DNA of 35,231 nt, taken from a virus. Positions 6,106 to 29,349 of the stretch are shown here, one piece after another (position 1 is the stretch's first letter; each line of letters opens with the position of its first letter). The notes under the pieces are model-generated. The model was not told the origin of the DNA, searched no databases, and was given only the letters and a program-made list of their open reading frames with translations. The position numbers and the translations under genes were made by a program. Location: the IMG/VR virus record IMGVR_UViG_3300035698_017019, positions 1 to 35,231 of that record, one strand, 5' to 3'.

Positions 6106-6119
6106 ATCATCTACTCCAT

Positions 6120-6617: not shown

Positions 6618-6634
6618 TTTAAAAAATCCTCAAC

Positions 6635-7363
6635 TTAAACTAAATTTATATAAGCTAACAGTGATATGAATAAACCTATTACTAAAATATATGGTGGCGC
6701 TGTTATTGACATTGAATTTTTAATCATTTTTGATATGTATAATTGCTTAGAACTTTCACCAATCACTTGATCAAAACTTTGATTGAAACCAAAAAATGAT
6801 GCAAGTAGAAATATAATAACTCCAAATAATAATACATATACCCAGTCATTTGAAGAGCCTGATAAATTATTCATTTTTTTATTAACTGTATTTACAAGTT
6901 TTCGTATATTTAATATGTTATGTTTAAAATCATTATCTATACTAGATTTATTAATATAAGAATCAAATTTTTCGAAAAAAGGAACAAGTGAAGTTGTATA
7001 AATTTTATTTACCCAAATGACAATATTAGAAATTTTTAAATTTTTTGAAATATCTTGAATATCACCAATTACTCTAAATGAATTACTTCCCTTTAAAGCT
7101 TTAACCAAAATCACTATTGAAGTTTTGATCTCATTTTCAATAGTGATTTTGGTGAGAGAAGTATTTAATTTTTTAAACTCATCTAATATTTCATCACTTG
7201 GTGATTGTATATTTTTGAAAGATTTTAAAATGAATGATATATTTTTAAAATCTTTAAATAAATCAAAAATATTTATATCTTTCACTTTCTTAATCTTGTC
7301 TTGTTGTTCTAATAAAACTTTCATTTTACTATTATACATATTCACTTCTCTAATGATATCCAT
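6635..7363 (-). CDS. Membrane protein with two C-terminal transmembrane segments
   Basis: A 242-aa protein. The first ~170 residues are Lys/Ile-rich and probably coiled-coil or helical. Two transmembrane segments follow, near residues 176-193 (WVYVLLFGVIIFLLASFF) and 224-241 (PPYILVIGLFISLLAYINL). A clear promoter element lies about 25-45 nt upstream. It is placed directly before the amidase, so a holin- or spanin-like helper role is possible. The long cytoplasmic N-terminus and likeness to the other hydrophobic proteins of this module fit a virion membrane protein equally well. The start is either 7363 (used) or the ATG at 7339. Confidence 0.5.
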   Translation of the reverse strand: MDIIREVNMYNSKMKVLLEQQDKIKKVKDINIFDLFKDFKNISFILKSFKNIQSPSDEILDEFKKLNTSLTKITIENEIKTSIVILVKALKGSNSFRVIGDIQDISKNLKISNIVIWVNKIYTTSLVPFFEKFDSYINKSSIDNDFKHNILNIRKLVNTVNKKMNNLSGSSNDWVYVLLFGVIIFLLASFFGFNQSFDQVIGESSKQLYISKMIKNSMSITAPPYILVIGLFISLLAYINLV

Positions 7364-7711: not shown

Positions 7712-9637
7712 TTACTCTCCTAACACAGCGTTCGTGTCCATATAAACAACAGGATCATATGAAGCTCCATCATATAATATTTCAAAATGAAGATGTGGCC
7801 CAGTAGATGCACCGGTGCTACCTTCCATTGCTATAACTTGACCTTTTTTAACTTCTTGCCCAGCTTTAACATATAACTTACTACAATGTAAATATCTAGT
7901 CTTGACCTTTTCACCATGTTTCATGATTATCATTAAACCACCACTACTAGAATTTATTGCATGCAAAACTTTACCATCAGAAGCAGCGACAATATTACTA
8001 ATATTTCTCCCAGGGGTACTTATATCAATACCTCTATGAAAAGTTTTATTGTGAGTAATAGGATGTATTCTATATCCATATGGTGAAGTTATACATTGAT
8101 TAGTACCTATTTTTATAGTAGGCATTGGATGTATAAATGTATAAGCTTTATTATCAAAAGATTTTAATCTATAAACTTGACTATCTAATTCCTCATCGGC
8201 GGCATTTTTTATCATTAAGTTTATTTTAACATCAACATCTTTATCTAATGTTCCTGAAATGATACCGCTCGGGTTCAATGAAATATTATTTGGTAAACTA
8301 CCCGATTTTAAACTCCATGTAACTGGAACTGAATTGTTAGTTGTTTCAAGATTAGTTTTTATTTCATTATCTTCATATGTAGGAATGAACTTAGTTTTGA
8401 TTTTATTCTCTTCCTCTTCTTCTGGCTCCGAATATTTTGGATCCGTTTTATCATTAGTTGCTTTAGAATATGAATACTCAGTTTTCATTGATTCTTCCCC
8501 AGCAGTATCATTATTTTTATTGTATTCTGTAAGGTTAATATATTCTATAAGATCGGTTTCTTTAACCTTAATATCTGTTTTATATTCAACTTCTCTCTCA
8601 TCATCTGAACCATTTGGCTTCCCACCGGACATATCTTGATTACGATCACCATTTGGTGTTGCAACATTTGCCGGCTTGCCTGGTTTTGATTTATTAGATT
8701 GCCCCCAATATATTGAAGCGTCCATATTATGTGTTCCTATTGATTTATCATGAATTTCAGAACCAGATCCTCTATAAAAATTTTCAGATGAATATAAATG
8801 CATTTCTTTATTGGCTGACATGTATATATTTTTATTTGATAAAAAATGCATATCCTTTTCAGATGTCAATCTAAATTCATCTTTAGTATACATATTTATA
8901 GGACCTTCAAAGAAAATATTTAAAGAATCATCTTTCAATATCATATTTATATAATCACCATTTTTATTTTTAATTAATATTTTCATTAAACCGGTTCCAT
9001 CAACAGCGACGCCTTCTCTTTCATCAATTAAAATTGTATTCTGATTGCCTTTTATTTTATAAACATGCTTTTTAACATCAGATTGTTTTCTTTCATTGAA
9101 CATATAATCAGAAGAATTTTCAGGTCTTTTTTCCGGGAACAATTTTTCATTTTTATTTCCAGTTAATTCAATTCTTTCATCAAATGGATCATCTGATACC
9201 ATAATTGTCTTTCCTTTTGGGGAACGATGTTTGACCCATTTTTTATACCAATCAGGATTTTTTTCCCATGCACCGGCCTTACCTATTTGATTTTCTGGCG
9301 GGAGCTCTATGTGTTCTATATCTAAAACACCATCATAGAATGCTCGATTGGGGTTACCCGATTCAAAAAAAATCCAAACCCAAGAACCAGGAATAGGAAT
9401 ATTACTTTCCCCATAAAATTGATCATTTTTCTCATTGCTATTTCTCCCACCTATTGAATTATTTGCAGGACAGGCCCAAGTAAAATCGGAACTATCATCT
9501 ATCATATAATCAGGAATAAATACTTTAACTCTACCAAATTGTCGAGGATCTACATTATCTTTTACCAATCCTCTATATCTTCCATCCAACTTTGCTCCTG
9601 GGGACTCATTGAGAATTGGCTGTTTAGAAATATCCAT
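7712..9637 (-). CDS. gp5/VgrG-like baseplate hub spike with C-terminal M23 peptidase
   Basis: A 641-aa tail spike. Residues ~15-120 form a gp5-type OB domain (GRYRGLVKDNVDPRQFGRVKVFIP ... WVWIFFESGNPNRAFYDG). Residues ~150-330 are repetitive beta-strand sequence consistent with a triple-stranded helix. Residues ~335-425 are a charged linker, and ~430-495 resemble an Ig-like 'putative Ig' domain (SLPNNISLNPSGIISGTL). The C-terminal ~130 residues are an M23/LytM zinc endopeptidase: H534 and D538 (FHRGID), H584, and H615-x-H617 (GPHLHF). In T4 gp5 the cutting domain is a lysozyme placed between OB and helix; here a peptidase at the C-terminus serves to cut the peptide cross-links. ATG at 9637 follows the previous stop directly. 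Confidence 0.88.
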   Translation of the reverse strand: MDISKQPILNESPGAKLDGRYRGLVKDNVDPRQFGRVKVFIPDYMIDDSSDFTWACPANNSIGGRNSNEKNDQFYGESNIPIPGSWVWIFFESGNPNRAFYDGVLDIEHIELPPENQIGKAGAWEKNPDWYKKWVKHRSPKGKTIMVSDDPFDERIELTGNKNEKLFPEKRPENSSDYMFNERKQSDVKKHVYKIKGNQNTILIDEREGVAVDGTGLMKILIKNKNGDYINMILKDDSLNIFFEGPINMYTKDEFRLTSEKDMHFLSNKNIYMSANKEMHLYSSENFYRGSGSEIHDKSIGTHNMDASIYWGQSNKSKPGKPANVATPNGDRNQDMSGGKPNGSDDEREVEYKTDIKVKETDLIEYINLTEYNKNNDTAGEESMKTEYSYSKATNDKTDPKYSEPEEEEENKIKTKFIPTYEDNEIKTNLETTNNSVPVTWSLKSGSLPNNISLNPSGIISGTLDKDVDVKINLMIKNAADEELDSQVYRLKSFDNKAYTFIHPMPTIKIGTNQCITSPYGYRIHPITHNKTFHRGIDISTPGRNISNIVAASDGKVLHAINSSSGGLMIIMKHGEKVKTRYLHCSKLYVKAGQEVKKGQVIAMEGSTGASTGPHLHFEILYDGASYDPVVYMDTNAVLGE

Positions 9638-10522
9638 TTAAAAACTCCATTTGTAAATAGTGTTATCATAATATCTTAATAAACTATTATATGCGCCTTC
9701 ATTAAAAATTTTAAAAATTGGAGGGAATAATTTATTATGAAATCTTGTTGATATAATACTCGCACCAAAATACATACCATCTTCAAATATCACAAGATTG
9801 TTTGGGCCAAGCCTTTGCAAAATGGTTGATGTGAATTGAAATTTATCAAGGCCAACAAATAAATCCTGTGATAATAATTCAATGAATGAATCAATTGTAT
9901 AAAAATTACCAATATCTATTTTTGATGCTTCAATAAAATTACTCACTGGTGTAGTATATCTTGAATGTTGAAGAATTTTTGCTACTGCATCTTTAATATT
10001 TTTCTGTTTATTCATCCCCAAGTAACTAAATAATTTACAATAAAAATCTAATAATTCTTGTTTATCAACTTCTAAAGAAAAAAGACCGTATTTTCTTCCG
10101 AACACCTTAGCCATTATACCAGTAAGCATTGATCCCATATTTATCCACTCAACAAAAGGAACCAAATCTCTTCTCAAAGCAAAATAAATAAATGAACAAT
10201 ATGTAAATACAGATAAATTTAAATTTCTATCCTTTAATGGTATCCCTCCCAAAGATGCAATATTTAATGCAACTCGTTTATTTTTATCTATTTTACAAAT
10301 CAATGGATAATTCGGATCACTATCAATTAAAAATTTTGAATCTGGTTTGGAAATATTATTTTTTAAATATTCAACTATCATCCCAAAATAATTTCTAATT
10401 TTGTCTGGTTGTCTTATAGAATCTAACCTCAAAGCATCAACCATGAGCATATAATCATCCCGGGGGATCCTAAATATTTCCGGGTATTTATCTTCTTTAA
10501 GTAAAATGAATTTTTCTGACAT
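9638..10522 (-). CDS. Conserved-looking tail-module protein, unknown
   Basis: A 294-aa soluble, mainly helical protein with no signal peptide, Cys cluster or recognised motif. The middle (about 85-150) is hydrophobic and could form a buried core (LNIASLGGIPLKD, SVFTYCSFIYFALRRDLVPF). Its stop codon touches the start of the hub gene, so the two are surely co-translated. In T4-type phages the hub is built with small assembly factors (gp26, gp28, gp51), and this gene could hold such a place, but I see no sequence proof. The upstream ribosome site is weak (AAAGG 13 nt away). Confidence 0.55.
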   Translation of the reverse strand: MSEKFILLKEDKYPEIFRIPRDDYMLMVDALRLDSIRQPDKIRNYFGMIVEYLKNNISKPDSKFLIDSDPNYPLICKIDKNKRVALNIASLGGIPLKDRNLNLSVFTYCSFIYFALRRDLVPFVEWINMGSMLTGIMAKVFGRKYGLFSLEVDKQELLDFYCKLFSYLGMNKQKNIKDAVAKILQHSRYTTPVSNFIEASKIDIGNFYTIDSFIELLSQDLFVGLDKFQFTSTILQRLGPNNLVIFEDGMYFGASIISTRFHNKLFPPIFKIFNEGAYNSLLRYYDNTIYKWSF

Positions 10523-10539
10523 TATTACAGGAACCTTTC

Positions 10540-12654
10540 TTAATTATTTCTATAACTTATAATTTTTGATTTTATTTGATTATCTAATATATTAGTTAAA
10601 CTTTCATTAACAACAGTTTCTTCTATAATATTAGAAATTATTGGCATATATTCCATCCTGGTATATACAATATCGTATTTGTTTTCAGTTGTAAATTTTG
10701 ACCATGAGATAATAAAACTTCCATCACTAAAACCAAAAACATCAGGATATGAATTTTCCAAATCTTCTTCATTATTAATAATGAATTCATTCAATAATTT
10801 TGTACCATTGCTATTAAAAATCTTTGCCATTATTTTTGAATAATAATCTTCATGATGCAAGTCCTGCCAAACAATAATAAATCTCCCAGAATTTAATTCT
10901 GAAATAACCGGGTTGATTTGATCACCTAAAAAATAATTATCATTCACATTAGTTTCATTTAATATAACAATTACTTCTTTTGTACTAATATTATAAGTAA
11001 AACTTTTCATAAAAATATTATAACCATCTTCCACAGTTTTACCCTGCCATGATATAATAAATGAATCATCTTCTTTAACTAACAACGACGGGGATTTTTG
11101 ATGATCATCTTTAAATGAACTAACAATCAAATCACTTGATGTTTCTTCTATCTTTCCTAGAATATTATATTCTGGTTTTAATATTGGGGTGCCATTTATA
11201 TCATATATAGCATAAACTATTTCAGTTTCAACATTACCAATGGGACCAAAATCTGTTGACCAAGTAATTATAAAATCTCCATTGCTAAAAAAATCAACAG
11301 TGGGGTTCATTTCAAAATATAATGAATTATTAGTTATTTTAAATTCATCTTTTACTATTTCAAATATATTAGAGGAACCGATTCTATATATCTTGCACAT
11401 CAAATTATATTTTCCCTCATGAAAACTTTGCCATATTATAGAAATATAATGATATATCATTCCACCGATATTTTTTTCATATGAAGCAATGCATGGATTT
11501 CTTTGATCCATCCATGTATTATTAGAATTAATAAGAAACTGTTCAGTTGTACTTCCAGTCCCTGTAAATAATTTTGCATATATACCCTTACCAAAAACAT
11601 CTTCACTTTTAGTTTTTGTCATATCAATTTCAATTATAGCAGTACCATTTGTGATATATTCTTTACCCAATTCAAATTTAATTCTAATTCCATATTCTAA
11701 AATATATCCTTCATCAATACTTGCATTTGAAATATTAATGGGTCCAAATTCTGATGACCATGTTCCAGATGAGCCTTCTTTTCTACTCCAACTGAATGTA
11801 TTATTGTCACTTAAAATTTTTATCTTATAATAAATGAAATCAATAGTATCACTTGGATCATTATAAGTTAAACCACTAACCCAAGATAATAAATTATCTG
11901 ATCCAAAATTATCATAAGTAACATCAAACAAGTCAGTTTTTTCCGTTGCTTCCCAAACTGAAACATATTTTCCATCATTCAAGTTTGCAGTTGAAACATT
12001 CTCTCTGTTTATGTAAAGATCCTCAGTTGTGTATCTTAATTTAGTATCACCTTTTAGAATGGTTCCATCATATTTAAAGTTCTTAAACCAGATATTCCAG
12101 TAAAAATTATCTACATTTTGAATATCATAATCTTGCCATGACAACAAGAAATCATTTTTAACAGGAGTCAAGTTTAAATTTTCTAATATTATTTCTTCTG
12201 TCACTTCAAAAGTATCTGAAGTTATTTCAACTAATATATTAGAATTTTTAATATAATCATCATAATTTATATCTAATGGTTCAAGGGATGTTACACCATT
12301 TCTTGCAACATCATTTATTATATTTACTAGATGGGTTCTATTTGGAACTATTATTTCATCTTTTATAAAATCTTCATTACAGAAACAATTATTTATAAAT
12401 AATAATATATAAGAAAATGATTTGTTTTGATATTCATCCTCTGCTAAATATTCTGGGCGTTTATAATATCTAGGAATCATTTTAACTTTCTTAGAATTCA
12501 ATAATAAATTATATTTATATTTTTCTAATATGTTTAAATCACATGACACAAAATCAATACCATCATTTGTTATATACGAATTTCTAATTTTATCCAAATT
12601 GGTTATAGATGATTCGTATGTAATTGCTTCATTATATATATTGGTAGTTGGCAT
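10540..12654 (-). CDS. Tail protein: gp53-like N-terminus fused to beta-propeller-like repeats
   Basis: A 704-aa protein (ATG at 12654, GAGGAG upstream), first gene after a strong terminator. Residues ~1-125 resemble the T4 gp53 baseplate-wedge domain (IPRYYKRPEYLAEDEYQN, then an LLFINN segment). The rest is beta-rich and holds at least six spaced repeats built around '(F)IISW': for example IITWSTDFGP, FIISWQGKTV, FIIVWQDLHH and FIISWSKFTT, each followed by a strand 'Y.I..K.F...G'. Such W-repeats resemble bacterial adhesin and hemolysin-associated propeller repeats, so the C-terminus probably binds the host surface or sugars. There is little Cys and no membrane segment. The gp53 link is moderate; the repeats are plain. 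Confidence 0.65.
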   Translation of the reverse strand: MPTTNIYNEAITYESSITNLDKIRNSYITNDGIDFVSCDLNILEKYKYNLLLNSKKVKMIPRYYKRPEYLAEDEYQNKSFSYILLFINNCFCNEDFIKDEIIVPNRTHLVNIINDVARNGVTSLEPLDINYDDYIKNSNILVEITSDTFEVTEEIILENLNLTPVKNDFLLSWQDYDIQNVDNFYWNIWFKNFKYDGTILKGDTKLRYTTEDLYINRENVSTANLNDGKYVSVWEATEKTDLFDVTYDNFGSDNLLSWVSGLTYNDPSDTIDFIYYKIKILSDNNTFSWSRKEGSSGTWSSEFGPINISNASIDEGYILEYGIRIKFELGKEYITNGTAIIEIDMTKTKSEDVFGKGIYAKLFTGTGSTTEQFLINSNNTWMDQRNPCIASYEKNIGGMIYHYISIIWQSFHEGKYNLMCKIYRIGSSNIFEIVKDEFKITNNSLYFEMNPTVDFFSNGDFIITWSTDFGPIGNVETEIVYAIYDINGTPILKPEYNILGKIEETSSDLIVSSFKDDHQKSPSLLVKEDDSFIISWQGKTVEDGYNIFMKSFTYNISTKEVIVILNETNVNDNYFLGDQINPVISELNSGRFIIVWQDLHHEDYYSKIMAKIFNSNGTKLLNEFIINNEEDLENSYPDVFGFSDGSFIISWSKFTTENKYDIVYTRMEYMPIISNIIEETVVNESLTNILDNQIKSKIISYRNN

Positions 12655-12720: not shown

Positions 12721-13381
12721 ATTCAGTTGGGTAATTATTTTTTACCCATGAGGAATTATGAACCTTAATATCCTCATATTTTTTAATTAAATCTTTAACA
12801 TCCTGATCAAATTGAAATTGATCTAATAAATTTTTCCAATTACCATGAACCATGTCTATTGGAATATCTAACTTTCCGTTGTGAAATTTTTCATGCATGG
12901 AAGTTATCAATGGAATATAACCAACCTTATTTTCATAATGCAACTTCATGACTTGTTCTGCCACATCATATGTAGTAAATTTACTATGGGTGTTCATATA
13001 GTTTCCTATAACACCTTTAATAATATTTTCCAAATTTATAGGATGATGATGAATATCTATACTACAATCTTCATTTGTTTCCTTTGTTATAAAACAATAA
13101 TCATCATTTAATACATCGGTAACATATTTCCGCCAAATTGAATATTCAGGAGAAGATCTAACCATTCTTTTTATTGAATTTAAATATTTGCGTTCTTCTT
13201 TATAATCACAGAAATCTCCAATTTTATAAGAAAGATCATAGAACCCCTCAGATTGTAGGGTTGGGTTTTCTATGTCTTCATCATCAGATAAAATTAAAGT
13301 TTTTGATCTATCATAATCCAAAGACATACTTGGAAGAATTTCAATTTCATTAGATTCTTCAAATAATAAATCGTCGTTCAT
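12719..13381 (-). CDS. HNH-like protein, unknown role
   Basis: A 220-aa protein with an acidic N-terminus (Asp/Glu-rich, residues 1-50). From residue 95 it has a pattern recalling HNH/treble-clef nucleases: C96 (YCFITKE), then IDIHHHP with H111-H113, a helix, and H163-x3-H167 in 'SMHEKFHNG'. The classical CxxC pairs are missing, so metal binding would rest on His and one Cys. This could be a phage recombination or packaging nuclease or an inactive relative. It is the last gene of a four-gene unit (15119-12719), and its start overlaps the previous gene by 23 nt, so translation is coupled. Nuclease activity is inferred only. Confidence 0.55.
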   Translation of the reverse strand: MNDDLLFEESNEIEILPSMSLDYDRSKTLILSDDEDIENPTLQSEGFYDLSYKIGDFCDYKEERKYLNSIKRMVRSSPEYSIWRKYVTDVLNDDYCFITKETNEDCSIDIHHHPINLENIIKGVIGNYMNTHSKFTTYDVAEQVMKLHYENKVGYIPLITSMHEKFHNGKLDIPIDMVHGNWKNLLDQFQFDQDVKDLIKKYEDIKVHNSSWVKNNYPTE

Positions 13382-13871
13382 GATTCAAGCTCCCTTCATA
13401 ACCCTTCTCTCTTTTTTCTCTGGCCTTTCTTTTTAATTCGTCTCTCTTCTTAATTTCGAGTTCATCTTTTCTTCTTGGATAATCCAAAACTGCATGTTCT
13501 CTAGAACAATATTCTTGAAATCCCTGTCTAAGATTAACAAACCTGGTTTTATTATTACATAAGGGATACATACATATACCTTCAGTTTTATTTTTCTTTA
13601 TAAATCTTTCATAGTATTTTTCAATACCAATTTCAGGATGCATTTTTTTAATATGTATAGCCAAACCCGCTATACCTTTAAGTTCTTTATTACATATTTT
13701 ACATTCAACCATATGCCGTGCCATAAGCATTTTCTCAAAATATGAATCTGCATCTGTTTTATTTTTTTTATATGGACTTAATGATTGAGGAACACTACTT
13801 CTATATCTTTTATATTCCACTTGTTCTTTATCATTTAAAAAAGTTTCTTTAGTTCTTGCATCTCTATCCAC
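13359..13871 (-). CDS. Zinc-finger protein with C2H2 and treble-clef-like fingers
   Basis: A 170-aa protein starting at a GTG (13871) with no clear ribosome site, probably coupled to the upstream gene ending at 13880. The N-terminal ~50 residues are charged. Residues 57-78 form a C2H2 finger (C57, C60, H73, H78). A second cluster C100, C105, C122, H126 follows, with the spacing of the 'C..C...T.F.....G...+CS..C' module common in phage proteins. The C-terminal ~45 residues are a Lys/Arg/Glu-rich helix. It is homologous to the partial gene at 1-403 over both fingers but lacks its TNL..GVE repeats. Nucleic-acid binding is likely; the role in the phage is unknown. Confidence 0.7.
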   Translation of the reverse strand: MDRDARTKETFLNDKEQVEYKRYRSSVPQSLSPYKKNKTDADSYFEKMLMARHMVECKICNKELKGIAGLAIHIKKMHPEIGIEKYYERFIKKNKTEGICMYPLCNNKTRFVNLRQGFQEYCSREHAVLDYPRRKDELEIKKRDELKRKAREKREKGYEGSLNHERRFII

Positions 13872-19041: not shown

Positions 19042-22000
19042 TTAATCAGCAATAAGGTGCATCGCAAGTATATACGCTTGAACCAATTTTCTGGTTTTTC
19101 CTCCACCGCTTGTTATAAGAGGAGTTTCACCGTTTTCCATTATATTACTAAGCATTTGATTTTTAGCTTGTTGCTCATCTGATAAAGGACCGAACAATTC
19201 CTTCATTACATTTGTTGCATTATAAGTAGCGTAAGCCCAGGAATCATTCTCACCAGTTCTCTGACCACCTTCATTTTTTCTCCCTGATAATGGCTGACCT
19301 GTTTTGCCTGTATATGAACTAATACTTCTACTTGCCAATTTATGACTTGAAACATGTTCAAGTTTTTCCATATACATATAACCTAATGGTATTTTATACA
19401 TTGTTCTAGAATTTAAATGTGGTATTTCTAATTTATAACCGGATTCCAAACCCATCATTTTTAGAGCGACTCTAATATTTTTATATGAAGGTCCAGCAAA
19501 TGGTGGTGCATATAAAGGCATACCATCTTCCATATGATCTTGAACATATTTTTTATATTCGCCTTCATTCAATGACATGAAACCTTTAATTAAATCTTTA
19601 GATAACATTTTATCTTTTGTTCCATCTAATTCTGATAAAACTTTTCCAAGGAAAAGAACCCCCTGTTGTTTTGTCATTTTTTCCAATTTTCTAGGAAGAT
19701 GTTTCGCTATTAAGGCAACATATAATTCAAATATTTGGCCTATATTAGTTCTTGAAAAAATTCCAAGTGGCTGTAAAATTATTTCAACTCTTTCGCCCCA
19801 TGGAGTTAATGGCATATTCTTTTCATCTTCTATTTTCATAACAACACCTTTAGAAGCATGTCTGTTTGTATTGCCTGACCAACATGGTTTACCATTTCTC
19901 CTTACATATAAAATATGAGTTGGAACAGTACAACAATAAATTTTATCATTATATTCAACCCATTTTTCAATTGTATTTTTCTCATCATGAAAGACCGGGA
20001 TTTCTTGATCCATGTTTTTATAATAAACATCAATTCCTTCTATATCCTTGGCTGGTGTTAGTTTATATTGTTCATGATTTCTTTTCTTTATATACATATT
20101 ATGATCGGCGTTGACCATTAGATCTAAATTTCTATTTTTTATATAATACATTGGTTCATTATGATCCCAGCTATCAACTAAACTAGGATTATGATATTCA
20201 ATTTCATCTGATTCTGAATTCAAACAACAAACCGTGTGATTCATTGTCAAATCTTTAAAAAGAATCCATCCATCTTCCTTTGTCAAAACCTCGGTTTCTT
20301 TATCATAACATAATTTGTCTCCAATATTTATTCGCTCTTTATAAGCTATAAAAATTCTAACATGAATACCTTCGAACTTCTCTCCTCTAAAAGTACATCT
20401 ACCCTCTATATCAGTTTTGCCTTTTTTCTTTAAAAAATCCTTATATTGTTTACTTATAATAGGATATTTTCCCATATCATCATTAGGATATATTTCAACT
20501 TTTACTATTTCACATTCATCCTCATGTCTCACTGATATAATTTTACCCTTCATCTCATCAGGATCAAGATCAAGATATTTTGAAATATCACTAGGAGAAA
20601 AAGAAATAAGAGGATCTCCGGCAGGAACCATATCACCAATTGAAACACAAGAATATATATGAGAATCTGGTTCAATATCTAATTCATATTTTTTAACATG
20701 AGTACTGGTCATTTTATTTTTATCAAATAAAGCACTACTAACAGTTATACCGTCCTGATAATTTCCACCATCCCAGTTCATATAACAACATAATAAATTT
20801 TTTCCAAGAGTTATGCGACCATCCTTCATTCCACTACCTTCAGCTAATGGATAATCTTTTTTAACAATAGCGCCGGGTTTAATGTTAGGTTTTACTGTGA
20901 ATCTAATTCTTCCATGTATAGCCTGGCCACTAATACTTATAATATCTGAAGTATCAACAAAATGAACCATTTGTGAATTATCAATCATTTTAATTCTATC
21001 TTTTTCAATTGTTAATATTTTTCCATCAACTGGGGATCTTTTTATAAAATTGCTAGATATTAAATTTGAGAGAGCGCCTTCATAACCACTTTGAACCAAT
21101 GGTATATCAGCATCATCGAGGGGTAGAGATTGTCTTACCTGGTTAACTGAAAGTATAGCCCTTGTTGATTCATTCCTATCTATAAATGGAATCATTGCAG
21201 CCGAAACACCAAGTATCCCTGTTGCTTCATCATCGGAGATATTCTTTATTTTAAAAGAACCTCTATCATTTAAAATAATAGACCCGACTGTTAAATGCTG
21301 ATTAACTCCACATAGATCACTTTCAGGAACATCTATTGGATCAATGTTTCCATAATAACTGGGATGTAGATTTCTTAATGACATGGGAACGGCTTCTTTA
21401 TTTGGAATACCACCAATACCAAGAAATGTTGTTCTAGTGAAAACACTCAATTCTTCAAGTGGATTTACATATTCAGCTTGGCGTACCAAATCAGAATTTA
21501 TTATATTACTAAAAGCTTTTCCAGGTTTTAAAAATAATTTGGCATCTCTATTACCACTTATAAAATCAGTTTTATAAATATTATAAGCTGATGAGATTTG
21601 TTTGAAAACATATAATGCTATAATTTCTGATGATCTTAATCTGGAAATATTTAAATCATTTCTTCTATCAGAATAATCATCTTTTAACTTATTACAAATT
21701 TTATATATCAATTCAAATAGATCAGTTGGATAATTTTTTAATAATAAAATATCTTTTGTAAGTTCATCTAATAAATTTTCTAATACATTATCAAAATTGA
21801 ATATACATCCACGGTTTCCTGTTAGTTTTATTAATGCTGTTTTGAAAAAATCTTTTTTATAAACATCTTCAGGAGTATCTATCTTTGAATATTTTTTATA
21901 TAAGGATTCAAAACTTAAAAACACTGATAATTTTACTGGATCTTCCATATCACTCGGAGTAAATATCATTGCATATTTGCCGAGTTTAATTTGAAAATCA

Positions 22001-23631
22001 TATTTCTTAACCGGTTTATCAACTCTAACTATCATATTAAATTTATTAAGAACTTCTGTTAATCCATAATAATATGACATTAATGGCATAAGTGGAACTG
22101 TATAACCACCAAGATATATTCTATAAAATCTTTTATTTCTAAATTTAGTATTTAATATCTCAACGGTCGCATAATTAGTTGCTATTTTACAATGTCTTGG
22201 TTTTGGAAAATATACCGGGAAGACTGATAATTGATTTGCTATTATTTTCTTTCTCCCATTAACATTAAAATATCCATATTGATCAACCTTTGGTATTTCT
22301 ACTGTTGCAGTATGAACTTTATTATTTATATCTTTAAATTGCATTTTTAACTTTAACTTATCCGAACTATCAATATTTATATTATCACTTTTTTCAATAT
22401 CAGCAACTATAACCTTATTAAGTTTTAATGGAACTTCCTTAGTACCAAATGTTATTAATAATTTTTTAAGATCTTTATATACTTGTTCCTTCATATCATT
22501 TTGACGTTTGGAATAAATTTCTAATGGAGATTTATTATCAATTACTTTTGCTATATCAACTTCTTTATATACTTTATCTCTAATATAATTTTCAATTTTA
22601 GATCTTTTAATAATAGTCAAATTAACTTTATTAATTATTTCAATTGTTTTCTTTTTTATTGATGCTTCATCATCAAGTTTTTCTATTTCTTTTTCATATT
22701 CACTCACACTATCAACATCAGAAACTCTATACATTGTCGATCTAATTAATAATTTTGAGGCTTTTTTTATATCTCCTGTTAATATTTCTGATGGTATTTC
22801 TGGGTGAATTTTTGAATAAGTATTTACTGATTCAGTTACTTTTTCTATGGTATCAACATCCATAGTAAAAACATTTTTTAAAAATTTTGCAAGATCTTTA
22901 ATTTTAAATTTATGTTCTCTATTTTTATTTAAGTCTTTCTCATCAATATCCATTCTACTTTTATCTTTTATTAAAGAAACAAATGCTGACAATGTAGATG
23001 CAGGATTATTGTCTATATCTTTATCAAAAACTTTAATGAAAGTAGGATTATCATTATCTATAATGCAAAAGACAATCATATCAAAAGAAATTGCCCCAGT
23101 TCTCATTTGCCTTGCAATAGAATGAATTCTATATTTTGTAAAATCATCTTCCATCTTTTTATTTTGATCTATAACATAAAATAAAACCTTCTTAAAATTA
23201 TCATTAAAATTATCTTCAACTATTTTATTAATAAGAACTGAAACTAAGGGATTATCATATCTCTTTTTAAATACTTCATCAGATCTTCTTAATATTTCAC
23301 TAAAATCAAAAAACACATTTGTATTTCTTTTTTCAAATTGGTTTATATCTGAATTTGAAATTAAACCTTCTTTTTTAGCAAAAGATAATGCATCTTGGGA
23401 AGGCTGTATAACAGAAGATTTTATCATTGTCTTTGGATTTATATAAGAATTAACATCATTTTTACTTATATCTAATGATGGATAAGCAGTTTGAAAATCT
23501 GTATTCTCTGGGTAAAAATATATACAATATTTATGATCATAAATATTTAATGTTGGATTTTGAAATCTTATTTTTGTATTCTTTGAAAGATTTTTCAAAG
23601 TATTTACAAATGAACTTTCTTTAATAATCAC
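19042..23631 (-). CDS. rpoB: DNA-directed RNA polymerase beta subunit, intein-containing
   Basis: The catalytic beta subunit of a phage multi-subunit RNA polymerase. The annotated frame opens at GTG 23640, but the GTG at 23631 has GAGGAG 8 nt upstream and is preferred (1529 aa; about 1382 after splicing, close to E. coli beta at 1342). Conserved segments include the 'SLPLDDADIPLVQSGYEGAL' fork-loop region, 'CYMNWDGGNYQDGITVS' (E. coli reads FED; here YQD), GDKL...TNRHASKG with the two active-site lysine regions, 'GIFSRTNIGQI', and the C-terminal clamp motif LEH...HKLASRSIS...GGQRTGENDSWA. A 147-aa intein splits the GDK motif. The gene follows beta' directly (order beta' then beta, the reverse of bacteria). 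Unlike phiKZ or AR9 enzymes the subunit is not split. Confidence 0.93.
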   Translation of the reverse strand: MIIKESSFVNTLKNLSKNTKIRFQNPTLNIYDHKYCIYFYPENTDFQTAYPSLDISKNDVNSYINPKTMIKSSVIQPSQDALSFAKKEGLISNSDINQFEKRNTNVFFDFSEILRRSDEVFKKRYDNPLVSVLINKIVEDNFNDNFKKVLFYVIDQNKKMEDDFTKYRIHSIARQMRTGAISFDMIVFCIIDNDNPTFIKVFDKDIDNNPASTLSAFVSLIKDKSRMDIDEKDLNKNREHKFKIKDLAKFLKNVFTMDVDTIEKVTESVNTYSKIHPEIPSEILTGDIKKASKLLIRSTMYRVSDVDSVSEYEKEIEKLDDEASIKKKTIEIINKVNLTIIKRSKIENYIRDKVYKEVDIAKVIDNKSPLEIYSKRQNDMKEQVYKDLKKLLITFGTKEVPLKLNKVIVADIEKSDNINIDSSDKLKLKMQFKDINNKVHTATVEIPKVDQYGYFNVNGRKKIIANQLSVFPVYFPKPRHCKIATNYATVEILNTKFRNKRFYRIYLGGYTVPLMPLMSYYYGLTEVLNKFNMIVRVDKPVKKYDFQIKLGKYAMIFTPSDMEDPVKLSVFLSFESLYKKYSKIDTPEDVYKKDFFKTALIKLTGNRGCIFNFDNVLENLLDELTKDILLLKNYPTDLFELIYKICNKLKDDYSDRRNDLNISRLRSSEIIALYVFKQISSAYNIYKTDFISGNRDAKLFLKPGKAFSNIINSDLVRQAEYVNPLEELSVFTRTTFLGIGGIPNKEAVPMSLRNLHPSYYGNIDPIDVPESDLCGVNQHLTVGSIILNDRGSFKIKNISDDEATGILGVSAAMIPFIDRNESTRAILSVNQVRQSLPLDDADIPLVQSGYEGALSNLISSNFIKRSPVDGKILTIEKDRIKMIDNSQMVHFVDTSDIISISGQAIHGRIRFTVKPNIKPGAIVKKDYPLAEGSGMKDGRITLGKNLLCCYMNWDGGNYQDGITVSSALFDKNKMTSTHVKKYELDIEPDSHIYSCVSIGDMVPAGDPLISFSPSDISKYLDLDPDEMKGKIISVRHEDECEIVKVEIYPNDDMGKYPIISKQYKDFLKKKGKTDIEGRCTFRGEKFEGIHVRIFIAYKERINIGDKLCYDKETEVLTKEDGWILFKDLTMNHTVCCLNSESDEIEYHNPSLVDSWDHNEPMYYIKNRNLDLMVNADHNMYIKKRNHEQYKLTPAKDIEGIDVYYKNMDQEIPVFHDEKNTIEKWVEYNDKIYCCTVPTHILYVRRNGKPCWSGNTNRHASKGVVMKIEDEKNMPLTPWGERVEIILQPLGIFSRTNIGQIFELYVALIAKHLPRKLEKMTKQQGVLFLGKVLSELDGTKDKMLSKDLIKGFMSLNEGEYKKYVQDHMEDGMPLYAPPFAGPSYKNIRVALKMMGLESGYKLEIPHLNSRTMYKIPLGYMYMEKLEHVSSHKLASRSISSYTGKTGQPLSGRKNEGGQRTGENDSWAYATYNATNVMKELFGPLSDEQQAKNQMLSNIMENGETPLITSGGGKTRKLVQAYILAMHLIAD
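19870..20310 (-). other. Mini-intein in RNA polymerase beta
   Basis: A 147-residue insertion starting at Cys (TGT, 20308-20310) and ending at Asn (19870-19872) before Thr+1. Block A is CYDKETEVLT, block B has NADH at residues 67-70, block F is KIYCCTVPTHILYV, and block G ends CWSGN. Removing it restores GDKL-TNRHASKG, the universal beta motif. There is no endonuclease domain. The penultimate residue is Gly instead of the usual His, seen in a minority of inteins, and it may make splicing slower or conditional. Splicing itself is inferred. Confidence 0.88.
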
Positions 23632-23646
23632 TTTTATCACTCCTCT

Positions 23647-26600
23647 TTATAATGTAGATGTGGCAAGTTTTTCTAGAACCGAATCACTTCTGGCTTCTCT
23701 GAGAAGTCCATTTTGTATTGCCTTTTCAGCATTTTCAAATAACAAACTTAAGAACCATGATTCTATATACGGTATCTTCTTTAAAGATACCGCTTTATAA
23801 TTTTTATAACCATTTAATCTCCCAGGTTCTTCTGTTTCTTTATCTCTAAAGAATTGACTTGATACTAATTCGAAATGAACCAGATCCGTAGACTTTGAAT
23901 GATTTTTATAATACTCAAATAATTTAACTAAAAATTGATTGGGTGAAAATACTTTCTGATTCATTGCAAATAATCTTTGAATATTTTTCATGACATGACT
24001 CATATTAGACAGAACCAAAACAATTGATGCAAATATAAATTCAGAATGTTTATAATTTATTTCCAATCCATCATCCAAATATTTAATATCTTTACTATCT
24101 TCCGGAACATTAAATACTATATTATTATTTAATGATATATCAAATACCTCATTGGCAGTTTCTAAAGTGAAGTATGGGTTTTCTAATTCTATAACACCAT
24201 CATCAACTTCCAGTTCTTTTTTGGTATACTGCTCATAGTTGATGGTTATCTTAATAGGTTTATAATTTATACAATCATCACCCTCTTGTCTAATACACTC
24301 TTTCAATTTTTTTAAATCAAAATCAGGATCATTCATTGTTATATCAGTAAATATATCAACCTTTTTAACCTCAGCGGCGCCACCTGTGTTATGTGTCCAC
24401 ATACCATTTACAGTTAAAGTCCCGGTTTCAGTAGTCATATCATAAACATAATCGTTTTCATTAAATAAAATTTCTTCACAATAATTAACCAAACCATCTC
24501 TATCATTCCTTTTAAAATCTTTTGGTAATATTGATTTTTCCATTTTTATTGAGTGTTTGAAAAAATTCGAATCTTTAATAGATGGAAATATTTTTATTGT
24601 ATATGATTGATGCTTTGTCAATTCCTTAATTGAAGTTAAAGAAATATTATGCTTAATATTAAATTTATCCAAAATAAAGTGAACTTGTTGAACAAAATCC
24701 AATGATATACACTCAGCCGAAATATAAAATCTAGTTTCATCGTTTATAGCCGAACCATCACCATCTATATATCCGCAAATAATTTTAGATAAGTCTTCAT
24801 CTGAATAATGAATAAAATCCGATGGTAGATGTATATTTTTACTATACCTCCCACATTGATCAAATATTTCCTTTGATAATTTTACATCATTTATAACATA
24901 TTCCTTTCCAGAATTTTCCAATACATTTCCATATTTTTTCATAATAGGAAGAAATTTATTAATAATTTTCATTTCATCATTATTCTGTGATAAGATCCAT
25001 GATCTTGGAACTTGACCCGGGGTTTTTTTGGACCCTTTATAAAACATGAGACAACCCTCGGCAATATGAAATCCCAATAAATAAGGATCAATAAATGGTT
25101 CACATATAATATCATTATCCCATATTGGAAAACTATTTTTAGCGAAATATTTATTTTTAATAAATTCTTTAGGTTCAACCATTTTATAATTATCATCATT
25201 ACAATGCTCTACCGAGTGTGGGTGTTTTTTACAAGAAGGACACTCATAATAACCAAGGGCCTTTGTTTTCTTATATATATCACCACAGGAACAAACATTT
25301 CCAATATTTTCAGATAGCATGTGTGGGTGATTATCTTGGGAAATAATGAAACTATTATTCCTAGATTTTGTCATTACAATTTTACTATCTTCTGATTTTT
25401 TATGTCTTATAATTTTTTCAACATTGGTCCATTTATCATGATCCCAAACTTCAATATCATTAAGCATTTTCTCTTCTTGATCTTTATTTAAGATCATATC
25501 ATTCTCAAGAGATAACCATAATCTTTTAAATGTTGTCAGTTGTTTTATTCCATTTACTTTTATCAAAACTGAACTATCAGAATGCATACAATGCTTGACT
25601 TTCATCATCAACTGAGTACCACGTTCTCCTATTATCTGCGCGGCATTCATTCCTATATATGGAGTTTTAATTTTATCTATTAAATCACCATAACACATTC
25701 TACAGATTTTCTTTGATTTACAATACATGGGACTTCTTAAACTAACAACCTTATCTTTATACTCATCAATATTAGCACTTGTCAATTTAATTAACTTAGA
25801 TTCTTTTTTAATATATCGACCAATAACTCTATCATATAAATCTTCATTTATTTTTATTTTCAATGTTTTCTGAGTTCCACAATCTAAAAGATTTAGATCA
25901 GCTTCAACTGGAGAAATTGCATAAACCAATTGTCTTGTCAAGTAACCGCCTTTGGCTGTGCTCATACTTGTTGATATCTGTCCGTATCTTGCCGCTGAAC
26001 CGGAGATGAAAAAAGAACTAGGACTAAGACCTTCAGTAAAGTTTTCCTTTATAGGATCAAGTATATTGCCATCTGCATCTACAGTTATACCTTTAGTAGC
26101 CATCATAACTATAACATTTTGCCATTTACCTCTAGATCCGGAATCAATTGTTTCTGCTAACTGAGGATAATTCTCTCTAACATATTTTTTAGTTTCCTTT
26201 ACAATCATATCCAAATATTTGTTCTGTTCTTTTTTATCAGATGTTTGTGTCATTTTCTCTCTTAATATTGTGACAGAATCAGGTAGACCCATTTCATCTA
26301 ATATAATACTATGAGATAGAATGGTTGAATATTTAAATCCCATATTTCTAACATTCATAGAAAAATTAATAAATTCTTCTTTATTGTATTTTTGACAAAT
26401 CTCATTTAAATATCCTAATAATTTTCCCTCATTTACAGCATCATCTATAAAAGGAAAACATTCAGGAAATATTGAATTAAATATATGGCGACCGTATGTT
26501 GATAATTTTCCTTTAAACTTTGCATATTTGTATACATCTTCCTGTTTAAAAAGTTCATCAACATGTTTTATAATAGTTGCTGCATTTTTAAAGTTCTTTT

Positions 26601-27894
26601 TATAAGTTTCTTTTTCCAATGTTAAATAATAAATTCCAGCTGTTTCTTCATGTTCCAATGCAAAATTAGTAGTGAGGAATGATTTATGAGATTGATATGG
26701 CATCATCAATCTCTTAGCCTCTTCTTGTGATTCCTCTGAAAGTACATTTAACAATCCCATTTGATCACCATCAAAGTCTGCACCAAACCCAACACAATAT
26801 AATGGATTTATTCCAATGGCATTATGATATCTTACTATTGGATGTGCCGCCCTTATACCATCCCTATGCAAAACTGGATCTCTTTTATAAATTATAACTT
26901 TACCTTCAACAATTTTTTGAAGCATTTCACCCATAAAATGAATAAATTTATCATCTCTAATATGATGCTTTGATAATGCTGAGACTAATGATCTTAGCAT
27001 GTCTATGGAATATGTGTTACCATATTTTGGTATTCCAAACGATGAAACATATTTCTTTTCTTCATCTGATATTTTTTTGGTTAGATAATGTAATAAATGA
27101 AATTCAAACATTTTTATAAGAATTCTAAAAGGCACGCCTACTTCATTAGGACCCAATTCCTTATCAGAAATTATAACAGACCTACCAGAAAAATCAACTC
27201 TTTTACCCAAAAGGTTTTTTCTAATATATCCTTCCTTTTTACTTATCTTTGTTTTTAGATAATCATATAAAAAATAAATTTGATTATTTATATTAGCCAT
27301 TGCATGATTATAAACAATTTCATTTGTGGATTTTACATATTTTAATCTATTTGCAATATTTAAAACTTTGTTATAAATATCATTTACTGGGTCCATCATC
27401 TGTTTGTTAAGAGTTCCATCTTTTTCTATAAAGGCAGGGCGCAAACCTGGGGGAATAATAATAACTTTATTATAAAAAATATTCTCTCCCATTTTTTTCA
27501 AATATTGAATTAGCTTTGCTCTATCATCACTATCTGCTCTCCATTTATAACTGGGATATATTTTTCTAAATGATGACCATCCAAACAAATCTCCTTTTGG
27601 ATCTTCTTCAATTCTGCCCCTCACCAAACTAAATCTCTTTTTTGCAAATATCAAATCTAATAATTTTTTATCAAGCCTTTTGATTATTTTTAATACCGTT
27701 GGATGTATAACTTCTTCATTTAGATTAATATATCCAAACTGTTTATCCCATTGAGGGCTTCCCTCTAATCCAAATATTCTTTCAGAGAATAGGCCATCGG
27801 GGTCCCACTTACCATCTTTCACAATACTTTTATTTGTGATCTCTTGTAATTTATTCTGTAAAATAAATCTATCCACATTTAATAACTTAAGCAT
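23647..27894 (-). CDS. rpoC: DNA-directed RNA polymerase beta' subunit, intein-containing
   Basis: The beta' catalytic subunit, 1415 aa (1014 after splicing; E. coli 1407), ATG at 27894 with GGAG upstream. The Mg-binding triad is D373, D375, D377 in GADFDGDQMG; bacteria have N before ADFDGD, here G. 'LLGKRVDFSGRSVI' is the lid/rudder-side motif. A bridge helix (about 625-660, SGSAARYGQISTSMSTAKGGYLTRQL) and Cys cluster CKSKKICRMC (about 725) follow, then the trigger loop GERGTQLMMKVKH/TGGAA interrupted by the intein right after its histidine. The bacterial N-terminal zinc ribbon (C-x-C...C-x2-C after GLF.ERIFG) is absent, replaced by QWDKQFGYINL. The short C-terminus lacks bacterial insertion domains. 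It is co-transcribed with beta. Confidence 0.93.
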   Translation of the reverse strand: MLKLLNVDRFILQNKLQEITNKSIVKDGKWDPDGLFSERIFGLEGSPQWDKQFGYINLNEEVIHPTVLKIIKRLDKKLLDLIFAKKRFSLVRGRIEEDPKGDLFGWSSFRKIYPSYKWRADSDDRAKLIQYLKKMGENIFYNKVIIIPPGLRPAFIEKDGTLNKQMMDPVNDIYNKVLNIANRLKYVKSTNEIVYNHAMANINNQIYFLYDYLKTKISKKEGYIRKNLLGKRVDFSGRSVIISDKELGPNEVGVPFRILIKMFEFHLLHYLTKKISDEEKKYVSSFGIPKYGNTYSIDMLRSLVSALSKHHIRDDKFIHFMGEMLQKIVEGKVIIYKRDPVLHRDGIRAAHPIVRYHNAIGINPLYCVGFGADFDGDQMGLLNVLSEESQEEAKRLMMPYQSHKSFLTTNFALEHEETAGIYYLTLEKETYKKNFKNAATIIKHVDELFKQEDVYKYAKFKGKLSTYGRHIFNSIFPECFPFIDDAVNEGKLLGYLNEICQKYNKEEFINFSMNVRNMGFKYSTILSHSIILDEMGLPDSVTILREKMTQTSDKKEQNKYLDMIVKETKKYVRENYPQLAETIDSGSRGKWQNVIVMMATKGITVDADGNILDPIKENFTEGLSPSSFFISGSAARYGQISTSMSTAKGGYLTRQLVYAISPVEADLNLLDCGTQKTLKIKINEDLYDRVIGRYIKKESKLIKLTSANIDEYKDKVVSLRSPMYCKSKKICRMCYGDLIDKIKTPYIGMNAAQIIGERGTQLMMKVKHCMHSDSSVLIKVNGIKQLTTFKRLWLSLENDMILNKDQEEKMLNDIEVWDHDKWTNVEKIIRHKKSEDSKIVMTKSRNNSFIISQDNHPHMLSENIGNVCSCGDIYKKTKALGYYECPSCKKHPHSVEHCNDDNYKMVEPKEFIKNKYFAKNSFPIWDNDIICEPFIDPYLLGFHIAEGCLMFYKGSKKTPGQVPRSWILSQNNDEMKIINKFLPIMKKYGNVLENSGKEYVINDVKLSKEIFDQCGRYSKNIHLPSDFIHYSDEDLSKIICGYIDGDGSAINDETRFYISAECISLDFVQQVHFILDKFNIKHNISLTSIKELTKHQSYTIKIFPSIKDSNFFKHSIKMEKSILPKDFKRNDRDGLVNYCEEILFNENDYVYDMTTETGTLTVNGMWTHNTGGAAEVKKVDIFTDITMNDPDFDLKKLKECIRQEGDDCINYKPIKITINYEQYTKKELEVDDGVIELENPYFTLETANEVFDISLNNNIVFNVPEDSKDIKYLDDGLEINYKHSEFIFASIVLVLSNMSHVMKNIQRLFAMNQKVFSPNQFLVKLFEYYKNHSKSTDLVHFELVSSQFFRDKETEEPGRLNGYKNYKAVSLKKIPYIESWFLSLLFENAEKAIQNGLLREARSDSVLEKLATSTL
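24388..25590 (-). other. LAGLIDADG intein in RNA polymerase beta' trigger loop
   Basis: A 401-residue intein from Cys1 (25588-25590) to Asn401 (24388-24390) with +1 Thr and the canonical THN end. Block A is CMHSDSSVLI, block B contains NHPH (87-90), and blocks C and E are the dodecapeptides LLGFHIAEG (171-179) and ICGYIDGDG (271-279), whose acids E178 and D278 are the expected catalytic pair of a DOD homing endonuclease. A Cys cluster C100, C102, C117, C120 suggests an extra zinc module between the splicing block and the endonuclease. Excision gives GTQLMMKVKH-TGGAAE, an intact trigger loop. Confidence 0.93.
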
Positions 27895-28143: not shown

Positions 28144-29349
28144 TCAAAAATAATCACAGTTAAAACCAAAAATTCTTTCAAGATTCTTACATTTATAATT
28201 AGAATTTTTAGAAACTGAAATGAAACTTCTAAGCAATTCAGCCAAATAACTTTTATCAATATTTTGTTCTAATAAAATATCATCTAAATCTCTAACTATG
28301 AAATATAAAAATAATTGTAATTTATATTTTTGAGAACCTTTAAGATCAATTAAAATATTTATAGGAACATTTAAGAGAAGAGACATTAATGGCAAAACAA
28401 ATAATTTCATAAAACCATTCTCCGCCGGTTTATCTTCTATTGTTTTTTCAAAATCATATAAATTTTTTCTAGTCAATTCATCTTCTTTAGCATATTCTAT
28501 TTTTAATCTTTCTCTTATATATTTATCAATTCTCATTAATACATCATCATATATAATTCTATTTGATACGTCAAGAGATACATAGTTGCTAAGTATAACA
28601 GATGATTCTTTATATACTGTTGTTTCAGTGAATAAAGTTTTAAGAAACCATTTTGTCATTTCACCGACTGATGCAGATATAAAAGTTACTGGGTTATGGA
28701 TTAAATCAAAACTAATTATAATTGAACTTGTTAAAAAATTAAAAGTGCTTAATGCAAATGTTTCTTCACTAACTGATGATCTTAATCTAATTAATTGTAA
28801 ATAGAAATTATCATCCCTGGCACATTTAAATATCTTTACAGTAACAAGTTCATATATTTTTATCATTAAATCTTGAGCTTCTAATTTATTTATCATTATA
28901 GAACATATATCTTTATGCTTATAATTTTCTAATCTTTTATTGCTGGCATAAAATGGCATATAAAGTTTTAATAAAATTGTTAATATAAATAGCTGCTCTA
29001 TTTCAGGTACATCTATAAATATTGTGCTGGAAGTAACTTTCTTTTTATTTATAAATTTATTCAAATCTAGATCTGTTCTAGTTTCTAAATAATCTTTAGC
29101 AATTTTCATAAATTTATCTATTGAATTATAAACTAATTTTTCACTTTGTTTTTTATGAAACTTTACCAATGTGTCACAGTACCATTCCAATTCACCAGTT
29201 CTATTTAATATATCATTTACATGTTCATGAATAGCAAATGTTTTCTTTGTTATGCCAACCTGATTGATTTCAAATTTTACCTCTTCTTTACTATTAGAAA
29301 CTATTAATTCATTATTTCCCTTTTCATCACATCTATAACTATAATCCAT
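28144..29349 (-). CDS. Unknown 401-aa protein heading the RNA polymerase operon
   Basis: First gene of the operon (ATG at 29349, AGGAGG upstream; TGA stop). The protein is soluble and mostly helical with alternating hydrophobic stretches, for example residues ~115-135 (QLFILTILLKLYMPFY) and ~335-355. It lacks Cys clusters or recognisable sigma regions 2 and 4. Its position before beta' and beta suggests it may belong to the polymerase, for instance as a promoter-recognition subunit analogous to AR9 gp226 (464 aa), but no sequence likeness can be shown here. It could equally be a head, tail or regulatory protein transcribed from the same early promoter. Confidence 0.55.
   Translation of the reverse strand: MDYSYRCDEKGNNELIVSNSKEEVKFEINQVGITKKTFAIHEHVNDILNRTGELEWYCDTLVKFHKKQSEKLVYNSIDKFMKIAKDYLETRTDLDLNKFINKKKVTSSTIFIDVPEIEQLFILTILLKLYMPFYASNKRLENYKHKDICSIMINKLEAQDLMIKIYELVTVKIFKCARDDNFYLQLIRLRSSVSEETFALSTFNFLTSSIIISFDLIHNPVTFISASVGEMTKWFLKTLFTETTVYKESSVILSNYVSLDVSNRIIYDDVLMRIDKYIRERLKIEYAKEDELTRKNLYDFEKTIEDKPAENGFMKLFVLPLMSLLLNVPINILIDLKGSQKYKLQLFLYFIVRDLDDILLEQNIDKSYLAELLRSFISVSKNSNYKCKNLERIFGFNCDYF

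What the first reader, a model, noticed from the sequence alone, without database searches (positions are those of the whole stretch)
19870..25590. Both catalytic RNA polymerase subunits interrupted by inteins at their most sensitive active-site motifs
The beta' intein (24388-25590) splits the trigger loop right after the histidine of GTQLMMKVKH|TGGAA. The beta mini-intein (19870-20310) splits GDKL|TNRHASKG. Unspliced subunits cannot be catalytic, so two separate splicing events gate the phage's own polymerase. One intein still has an apparently intact LAGLIDADG pair; the other has lost it and carries Gly instead of His before the final Asn, which may slow or condition splicing. Block structure and extein joints are seen; gating is inference.
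Basis: partly seen in the sequence, partly recalled or inferred. Interest (0 to 1): 0.85.

Follow-up and report, generated by a model that had tools for sequence, protein, structure and literature searches.

The report
Phage RNA polymerase split by inteins
A bacterial virus carries self-splicing protein inserts inside the catalytic core of both large subunits of its own RNA polymerase; the inserts are real and belong to two families found at the same two positions in other phages, but nothing shows that the virus uses them as on/off switches.

Summary
Observation confirmed to the base. The phage beta' gene (27894-23647, -) carries a 401-aa class-1 intein with a LAGLIDADG endonuclease directly after the trigger-loop histidine (E. 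coli H936|I937). The beta gene (23640-19042, -) carries a 147-aa mini-intein after GDKL (E. coli M1066|A1067). Both fold as Hint inteins, and both joints are uninterrupted in most relatives. The cases are not isolated: the GDKL site holds an intein in 41 IMG/VR phage contigs, and the trigger-loop-His site in six further contigs. Other phages carry inteins one residue downstream or three upstream in the same loop, in the catalytic NADFDGD motif and in the Zn motif; one polymerase has five. The Gly-Asn end of the beta intein is its family's norm (25/25), not decay; the true outlier is the block-B Thr, replaced by Asn. The enzyme resembles the phiKZ virion RNA polymerase, so splicing would most likely occur in the producer cell before packaging. 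A regulatory gate is unsupported. Best reading: selfish inteins at the most conserved polymerase sites, one still apparently mobile, one stripped to its splicing domain. New alleles of a known kind.

The parts
23647..27894 (-). RNA polymerase beta' gene, 1415 aa including intein (extein 1014 aa), class 1 (phiKZ virion-RNAP-like)
24388..25590 (-). beta' trigger-loop intein, 401 aa, class 1, with LAGLIDADG endonuclease; joint MKVKH|C...THN|TGGAA
25591..25593 (-). codon of beta' His768 = trigger-loop His (E. coli H936), last N-extein residue
25231..25293 (-). Cys-rich ribbon-like stretch inside the beta' intein (CSC...CPSC); a similar CxxC...CxxC stretch is present in the L110/L150 inteins at the same site
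25054..25080 (-). first LAGLIDADG motif (LLGFHIAEG)
24754..24777 (-). second LAGLIDADG motif (CGYIDGDG)
24388..24450 (-). splicing blocks F and G of the beta' intein (VYVYDMTTETGTLTVNGMWTHN region)
19042..23640 (-). RNA polymerase beta gene, 1532 aa including intein (extein 1385 aa)
19870..20310 (-). beta mini-intein, 147 aa, endonuclease deleted; joint GDKL|C...WSGN|TNRHASKG
20311..20322 (-). GDKL codons before the beta intein (Lys = E. coli K1065)
20101..20112 (-). block B of the beta intein (N67-A-D-H70); N67 replaces the Thr found in 25/25 relatives
19870..19941 (-). splicing blocks F and G of the beta intein (IYCCTVPTHILYVRRNGKPCWSGN)

Best explanation
Two autocatalytic class-1 inteins sit in the beta and beta' subunits of a phage-encoded multisubunit RNA polymerase of the phiKZ virion-RNAP type. 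Each should cut itself out of the precursor by the usual route (N-S acyl shift at Cys1, transfer to the +1 Thr, Asn cyclisation), restoring an uninterrupted GDKLTNRHASKG and an uninterrupted trigger loop KVKHTGGAA, most likely soon after translation and before the subunits assemble and are packaged. The beta' intein is a mobile element: its LAGLIDADG endonuclease would cut intein-free trigger-loop alleles of co-infecting phages and copy itself in. The beta intein is the splicing-only remnant of a full-length family at the same site. They persist because the sites are too conserved to survive imprecise deletion. Shown here: sequence, joints, predicted fold, allelic relatives, empty sites, endonuclease loss. 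Inferred: splicing, homing, timing. No regulatory role is needed.
For: Coordinates and joints. Splicing residues C1, block-B His, block F, terminal (H/G)N and +1 Thr present. AF2: beta intein pLDDT 95.2, pTM 0.88, best PDB matches all inteins or Hint domains; beta' intein pTM 0.76, full-length match to TliVMA (Z 23.3), PI-PfuI, PI-SceI. Allelic relatives: trigger-loop-His intein in L150, 27.5% identical over 411 aa, E 5e-44, also L032, L110, L284, L286, L319. GDKL-site intein in 41 IMG/VR contigs. Empty sites in most class-1 relatives, for example RTFHTGGA and GDKLTNRHGAKG. L032 has lost the first LAGLIDADG motif and mutated the second but keeps frame, C1, block-B His, VYD and HN|T. Virion-RNAP affinity: class-1 beta and beta' profiles match PHIKZ178 (E 8e-33) and PHIKZ180 (E 4e-37) best, both annotated as structural head proteins.
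Against: No protein data. The window beta intein has Asn instead of the family's block-B Thr, so its splicing could be slow or impaired. The beta' intein lacks the canonical block-B Thr as well, although its family shares that. Homing activity is inferred from motif integrity only. Pfam Intein_splicing is below its curated cut-off for the beta' intein and gives no hit for the beta intein; the predicted fold and the relatives carry the case.
Confidence: 0.9

Rival explanations
1. Splicing gates the polymerase: the inserts keep newly made beta and beta' inactive until a cue (redox, packaging, entry into a new host) triggers splicing, so that transcription is switched on at a set time.
For: Both inserts split catalytic motifs. 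Splicing-only forms without endonuclease are retained (window beta, L032 beta', a 127-aa trigger-loop form in L319). The window beta intein departs from its family at block B. Conditional splicing is known in other inteins (PMC8987985).
Against: Patchy presence, absence from most relatives, an intact endonuclease in the beta' intein, a standard family C-terminus, no extra conserved sensing feature. A virion RNAP has to be mature when packaged or soon after injection.
Confidence: 0.06
2. The inserts are not spliced but are permanent domains of the subunits, as SI3 is in the E. coli trigger loop.
For: E. coli carries a large permanent insertion in the trigger loop a few residues downstream (visible in the alignment; SI3 by established knowledge).
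Against: Both inserts have the Hint fold and conserved splicing residues; relatives have no insert and an exact joint; endonuclease decay leaves the splicing residues untouched; insertion is directly beside the catalytic His, unlike SI3.
Confidence: 0.03
3. At least one intein (beta, because of block-B Asn67) splices very slowly or not at all, and this gene copy is impaired or a rare variant.
For: Thr at that position in 25/25 relatives; single metagenomic contig.
Against: All other splicing residues and the reading frame are intact; model confidence is very high; the extein keeps the conserved RNAP motifs.
Confidence: 0.08

Closest known systems
Inteins of eukaryotic, giant-virus and chloroplast RNA polymerase second-largest subunits (RPA2, RPB2-a/b/c, RPC2, viral RPO, chloroplast RpoB)
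   Same: Inteins in the second-largest RNAP subunit at highly conserved, cleft-lining sites that probably must be spliced before assembly; Gly-Asn ends occur (PMC1635734, PMC3423634, PMC5784728)
   Different: Here the host is a bacteriophage polymerase. Whether GDKL| equals RPB2-b or any chloroplast RpoB site could not be checked, because the figure alignments are not held.
Archaeal largest-subunit inteins (Mja rPol A', Mja rPol A'', Nph rPol A'', haloarchaeal rpolA)
   Same: Inteins in the largest-subunit family; A'' contains the trigger loop (established knowledge; PMC1635734, PMC4071816)
   Different: No genome of the 84,980-species set matches the pattern of a Cys directly after the trigger-loop His or of a codon not starting with G after the archaeal FHY, so the exact site appears different; other positions in the loop were not excluded.
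Bifunctional LAGLIDADG inteins such as TliVMA, PI-PfuI, PI-SceI
   Same: Full-length structural match of the beta' intein model
   Different: Different host gene; extra Cys-rich ribbon-like stretch between splicing and endonuclease domains
Phage mini-inteins in TerL (Vibrio phages), inteins in thymidylate synthase of Corynebacterium phage P1201, AceL NrdHF intein
   Same: Splicing domain similar to the beta intein
   Different: Host gene and site; the AceL NrdHF intein is class 3 whereas this one has Cys1
phiKZ-type virion RNA polymerase
   Same: Nearest match of the exteins (PHIKZ178, PHIKZ180)
   Different: Here beta and beta' are each single polypeptides interrupted by inteins, not split genes; in AR9 and MarsHill the Mid-beta' polypeptide ends about 16 residues after the trigger-loop His

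Membership tests
Class-1 intein (both inserts) | N-terminal Cys or Ser, block-B His, terminal Asn, +1 Cys/Ser/Thr | tested here: met
   C1, H88/H70, N401/N147, +1 Thr in both
Class-1 intein (both inserts) | Block-B Thr (TxxH), common but not obligatory | tested here: not met
   beta: Asn67, Thr in 25/25 relatives; beta': Gln at the equivalent place, as in most of its family. Not an absolute requirement of inteins (established knowledge).
Class-1 intein (both inserts) | Hint fold | tested here: met
   AF2 models match solved inteins
Class-1 intein (both inserts) | In-frame insert; intein-free homologues continuous across the joint | tested here: met
Class-1 intein (both inserts) | Protein splicing demonstrated | not testable with these tools
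   needs expression or mass spectrometry
LAGLIDADG homing endonuclease intein (beta') | Two LAGLIDADG motifs with acidic residues, above family cut-off | tested here: met
   LLGFHIAEG and CGYIDGDG; PF14528 30.0 bits over cut-off 22.5
LAGLIDADG homing endonuclease intein (beta') | DNA cleavage and homing | not testable with these tools
   needs biochemistry
Mini-intein (beta) | Splicing domain without endonuclease, related to full-length alleles | tested here: met
   147 aa aligning to both ends of 330-355 aa alleles at the same site
phiKZ-type virion RNA polymerase | Sequence closest to virion rather than non-virion RNAP subunits | tested here: met
   in phiKZ, class-1 profiles score PHIKZ178/180 best and the class-2 profile scores PHIKZ074 best
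phiKZ-type virion RNA polymerase | Present in virions | not testable with these tools
   needs virion proteomics
Allelic to eukaryotic RPB2-b or chloroplast RpoB inteins | Same insertion point | not tested
   site alignments not available in the held texts

The most novel reading that the evidence does not exclude
In a phage that packages its polymerase, the two inteins delay maturation so that late-made beta and beta' stay silent in the producer cell and become active only around packaging or after injection, with the altered block B of the beta intein setting the delay: a splice-gated virion RNA polymerase.
Probability: 0.05. Interest if true: 0.85.

Novelty: new member of a known kind. Interest (0 to 1): 0.55.

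Why it matters
Phage multisubunit RNA polymerases turn out to be repeatedly invaded by inteins at catalytic motifs: GDK, the trigger loop at three nearby positions, the NADFDGD motif and the Zn motif, up to five in one enzyme. I found no description of this in the held literature. It supplies a large natural set of allelic inteins (including paired full-length and endonuclease-free forms) for studying homing at conserved sites, warns that such genes are easily misannotated, and offers a candidate source for the split beta' genes of phiKZ-type virion polymerases, which break close to the same loop.

Tried and rejected
Single-sequence searches of IMG/VR with beta and beta' gave no relatives; profiles did. 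TL-His-Cys patterns gave nothing in genome contigs and, in the strict form, nothing in viral contigs; the looser form found L284 and L286 (119). An archaeal FHY pattern gave nothing; no positive control was run in that collection. PDB sequence searches with the inteins gave no hit, so fold comparison was used. Rfam found no intron in the window, L030, L093 or L032 (95). The idea that the upstream 401-aa gene is PHIKZ179-like gave no hit. Assembly chimera rejected: independent contigs carry inteins at the same two sites. dN/dS was not attempted because relatives are too divergent.

Full report
Observation. The window is a 35,231-base virus record. The beta' ORF (27894-23647, -) encodes 1415 aa and the beta ORF (23640-19042, -) 1532 aa. 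The inserts are residues 769-1169 of beta' (nt 25590-24388) and 1111-1257 of beta (nt 20310-19870), with joints MKVKH|CMHSD...MWTHN|TGGAA and IGDKL|CYDKE...CWSGN|TNRHASKG. RNAP domain models are interrupted exactly there, and aligned E. coli rpoC and rpoB give H936|I937 and M1066|A1067, the latter between K1065 and K1073. The trigger-loop His is invariant in the alignment of seven beta' proteins.

What the inserts are. The beta' insert has C1, a block-B His, VYD in block F, HN|T at the end, and two LAGLIDADG motifs (LLGFHIAEG, CGYIDGDG); PF14528 exceeds its cut-off. Its model (pTM 0.76, mean pLDDT 71.7) matches bifunctional inteins over its whole length: TliVMA Z 23.3, PI-PfuI Z 20.3, PI-SceI Z about 16. 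The beta insert has only a splicing domain; its model (pLDDT 95.2, pTM 0.88) matches inteins and Hint domains throughout the list. Its nearest relatives by sequence among sequenced phages are inteins in thymidylate synthase of Corynebacterium phage P1201 and in TerL of Vibrio phages.

Relatives. Profile searches of IMG/VR brought in three types of phage RNAP: class 1 (window type; beta' about 1000 aa, beta about 1370 aa), class 2 (beta' about 900, beta about 1010), and class 3 (beta and beta' fused, about 2100 aa). Thirteen contigs carry both class 1 and class 2 (counted from the contig names). Most members have empty sites, for example RTFHTGGA and GDKLTNRHGAKG. Of 128 distinct beta' sequences in a tree, six have trigger-loop inteins, needing at least four changes of state.

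The trigger-loop-His site is occupied in the window, in L032 (its sister, 46.7% extein identity), in L110, L150 and L286, in L284, and in L319 as a 127-aa form without endonuclease. Window and L150 inteins align over their full length (27.5% over 411 aa, E 5e-44). Other phages have inteins three residues earlier (L029, L325: MK|C... with TFHSGG or SFHSGG after it) or one residue later (L087: FHT|S...HN|SGVAQ); the L087 intein shows no significant similarity to the others and has an HNH-like stretch by eye. L032 has lost the first LAGLIDADG motif and changed the second from DGDG to NEYG, yet all splicing residues and the frame remain: splicing has been kept while homing decayed.

The GDKL site is even more widespread. 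A degenerate pattern for GDKL followed by an intein start hit 41 contigs, all with the RNAP beta context. In the 23 with a resolved end the intein is 325-359 aa and the penultimate residue is Gly; an alignment with two related inteins at other sites gives Gly in 25/25. The same alignment shows Thr at block B in 25/25 relatives and Asn67 in the window, which is the splicing position where the window differs; whether that slows splicing is unknown. The window beta intein aligns to both ends of the full-length alleles, consistent with clean loss of the endonuclease.

Window, L150, L319 and L325 each combine a GDKL intein with a trigger-loop intein. L150 has four inteins in one 3596-aa ORF; L319 has five across its RNAP genes. 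Further sites include the catalytic NADFDGDQ| motif (L284, L319), the Zn motif ICQK| (L110, L150), and beta sites TPE| and VK|.

Which polymerase. In phiKZ, profiles of class-1 beta and beta' match PHIKZ178 (E 8e-33) and PHIKZ180 (E 4e-37) far better than the non-virion subunits; the class-2 beta' profile matches PHIKZ074 best. PHIKZ178 and PHIKZ180 are annotated as structural head proteins, and jumbo phages inject a virion RNAP for early genes and make a non-virion RNAP later (PMC7598289). The window enzyme is therefore most likely a virion RNAP (inference), and splicing most likely happens in the producer cell. In AR9 and MarsHill the Mid-beta' polypeptide ends about 16 residues after the trigger-loop His, and in L030 and L093 the beta' gene is broken about 24-26 residues after it. 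Intein sites, gene splits and E. coli SI3 all fall in this small region; that mobile elements caused the splits is only a hypothesis, already proposed in general terms (intron mobility) in that review.

Mechanism. Standard class-1 splicing before assembly is the best-supported reading. Shown: joints, residues, predicted fold, empty and allelic sites, endonuclease loss. Inferred: splicing itself, homing, timing. Gating is not excluded but nothing points to it: presence is patchy, and insertion at conserved cleft-lining sites is the general rule for RNAP inteins (PMC1635734; PMC5784728). 'Unspliced subunits cannot be catalytic' is likely for these positions but not proven.

Known work. RNAP inteins are known in archaea, eukaryotes, giant viruses and green-algal chloroplasts. 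Group I and II introns are known in phage virion RNAP beta' genes (PMC12350094). Papers on jumbo and crAss-like phages mention inteins in other genes, and broken RNAP ORFs in one crAss-like group. I found no account of inteins in phage beta or beta' at these sites; the library is partial, and archaeal A'' sites could not be read directly.

Limits. All intein-bearing relatives are metagenomic contigs; the 41-contig count comes from a search that selects for the feature; the tree is a quick one; genome-collection negatives cover two exact patterns only.

Noticed in passing
window 2-403 and 13359-13871 (-): Two ORFs with zinc-finger-like starts; the first has repeated KYGVEYTSQS-type units. They look like free-standing homing endonucleases of the CapR/DUF723-like kind described in PMC12350094.
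   Followed up: no
window 28144-29349 (-): 401-aa gene directly upstream of beta', conserved as a roughly 480-490-aa gene near class-1 RNAP in 17 loci (58% identical in L032), without Pfam or PHROG function; could be a promoter-recognition or assembly subunit. No match to ORFs of the PHIKZ178-180 region.
   Followed up: partly
L319 (ORFs +909 and +10571): A phage RNAP with five inteins, including one inside the catalytic DFDG motif of beta' and a 127-aa endonuclease-free one after the trigger-loop His.
   Followed up: partly
L150:4139-5194, 5717-6838, 9323-10552, 10667-11860: Four inteins in one 3596-aa fused beta-beta' ORF.
   Followed up: partly
L284 ORF +0_1708: Intein directly after NADFDGDQ, the catalytic magnesium motif, plus a trigger-loop-His intein.
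   Followed up: partly
L030:6703-6963 and L093:9343-9617: beta' genes broken into two ORFs about 24-26 residues after the trigger-loop His, with roughly 260-275 bases between; no Rfam intron found.
   Followed up: partly
L020 near 12787: Single in-frame stop in the beta gene between two in-frame ORFs; sequencing error or readthrough not distinguished.
   Followed up: no
L159 ORF +1801_2176, residues about 267-597: A large insert in the beta part that is not an intein (SET-like and 2H-phosphoesterase-like stretches by eye).
   Followed up: no
window 7712-9637 (-): Baseplate-spike-like protein with a C-terminal M23-type peptidase; homologues lie near class-1 RNAP genes in eight loci, which fits a virion gene neighbourhood.
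   Followed up: partly
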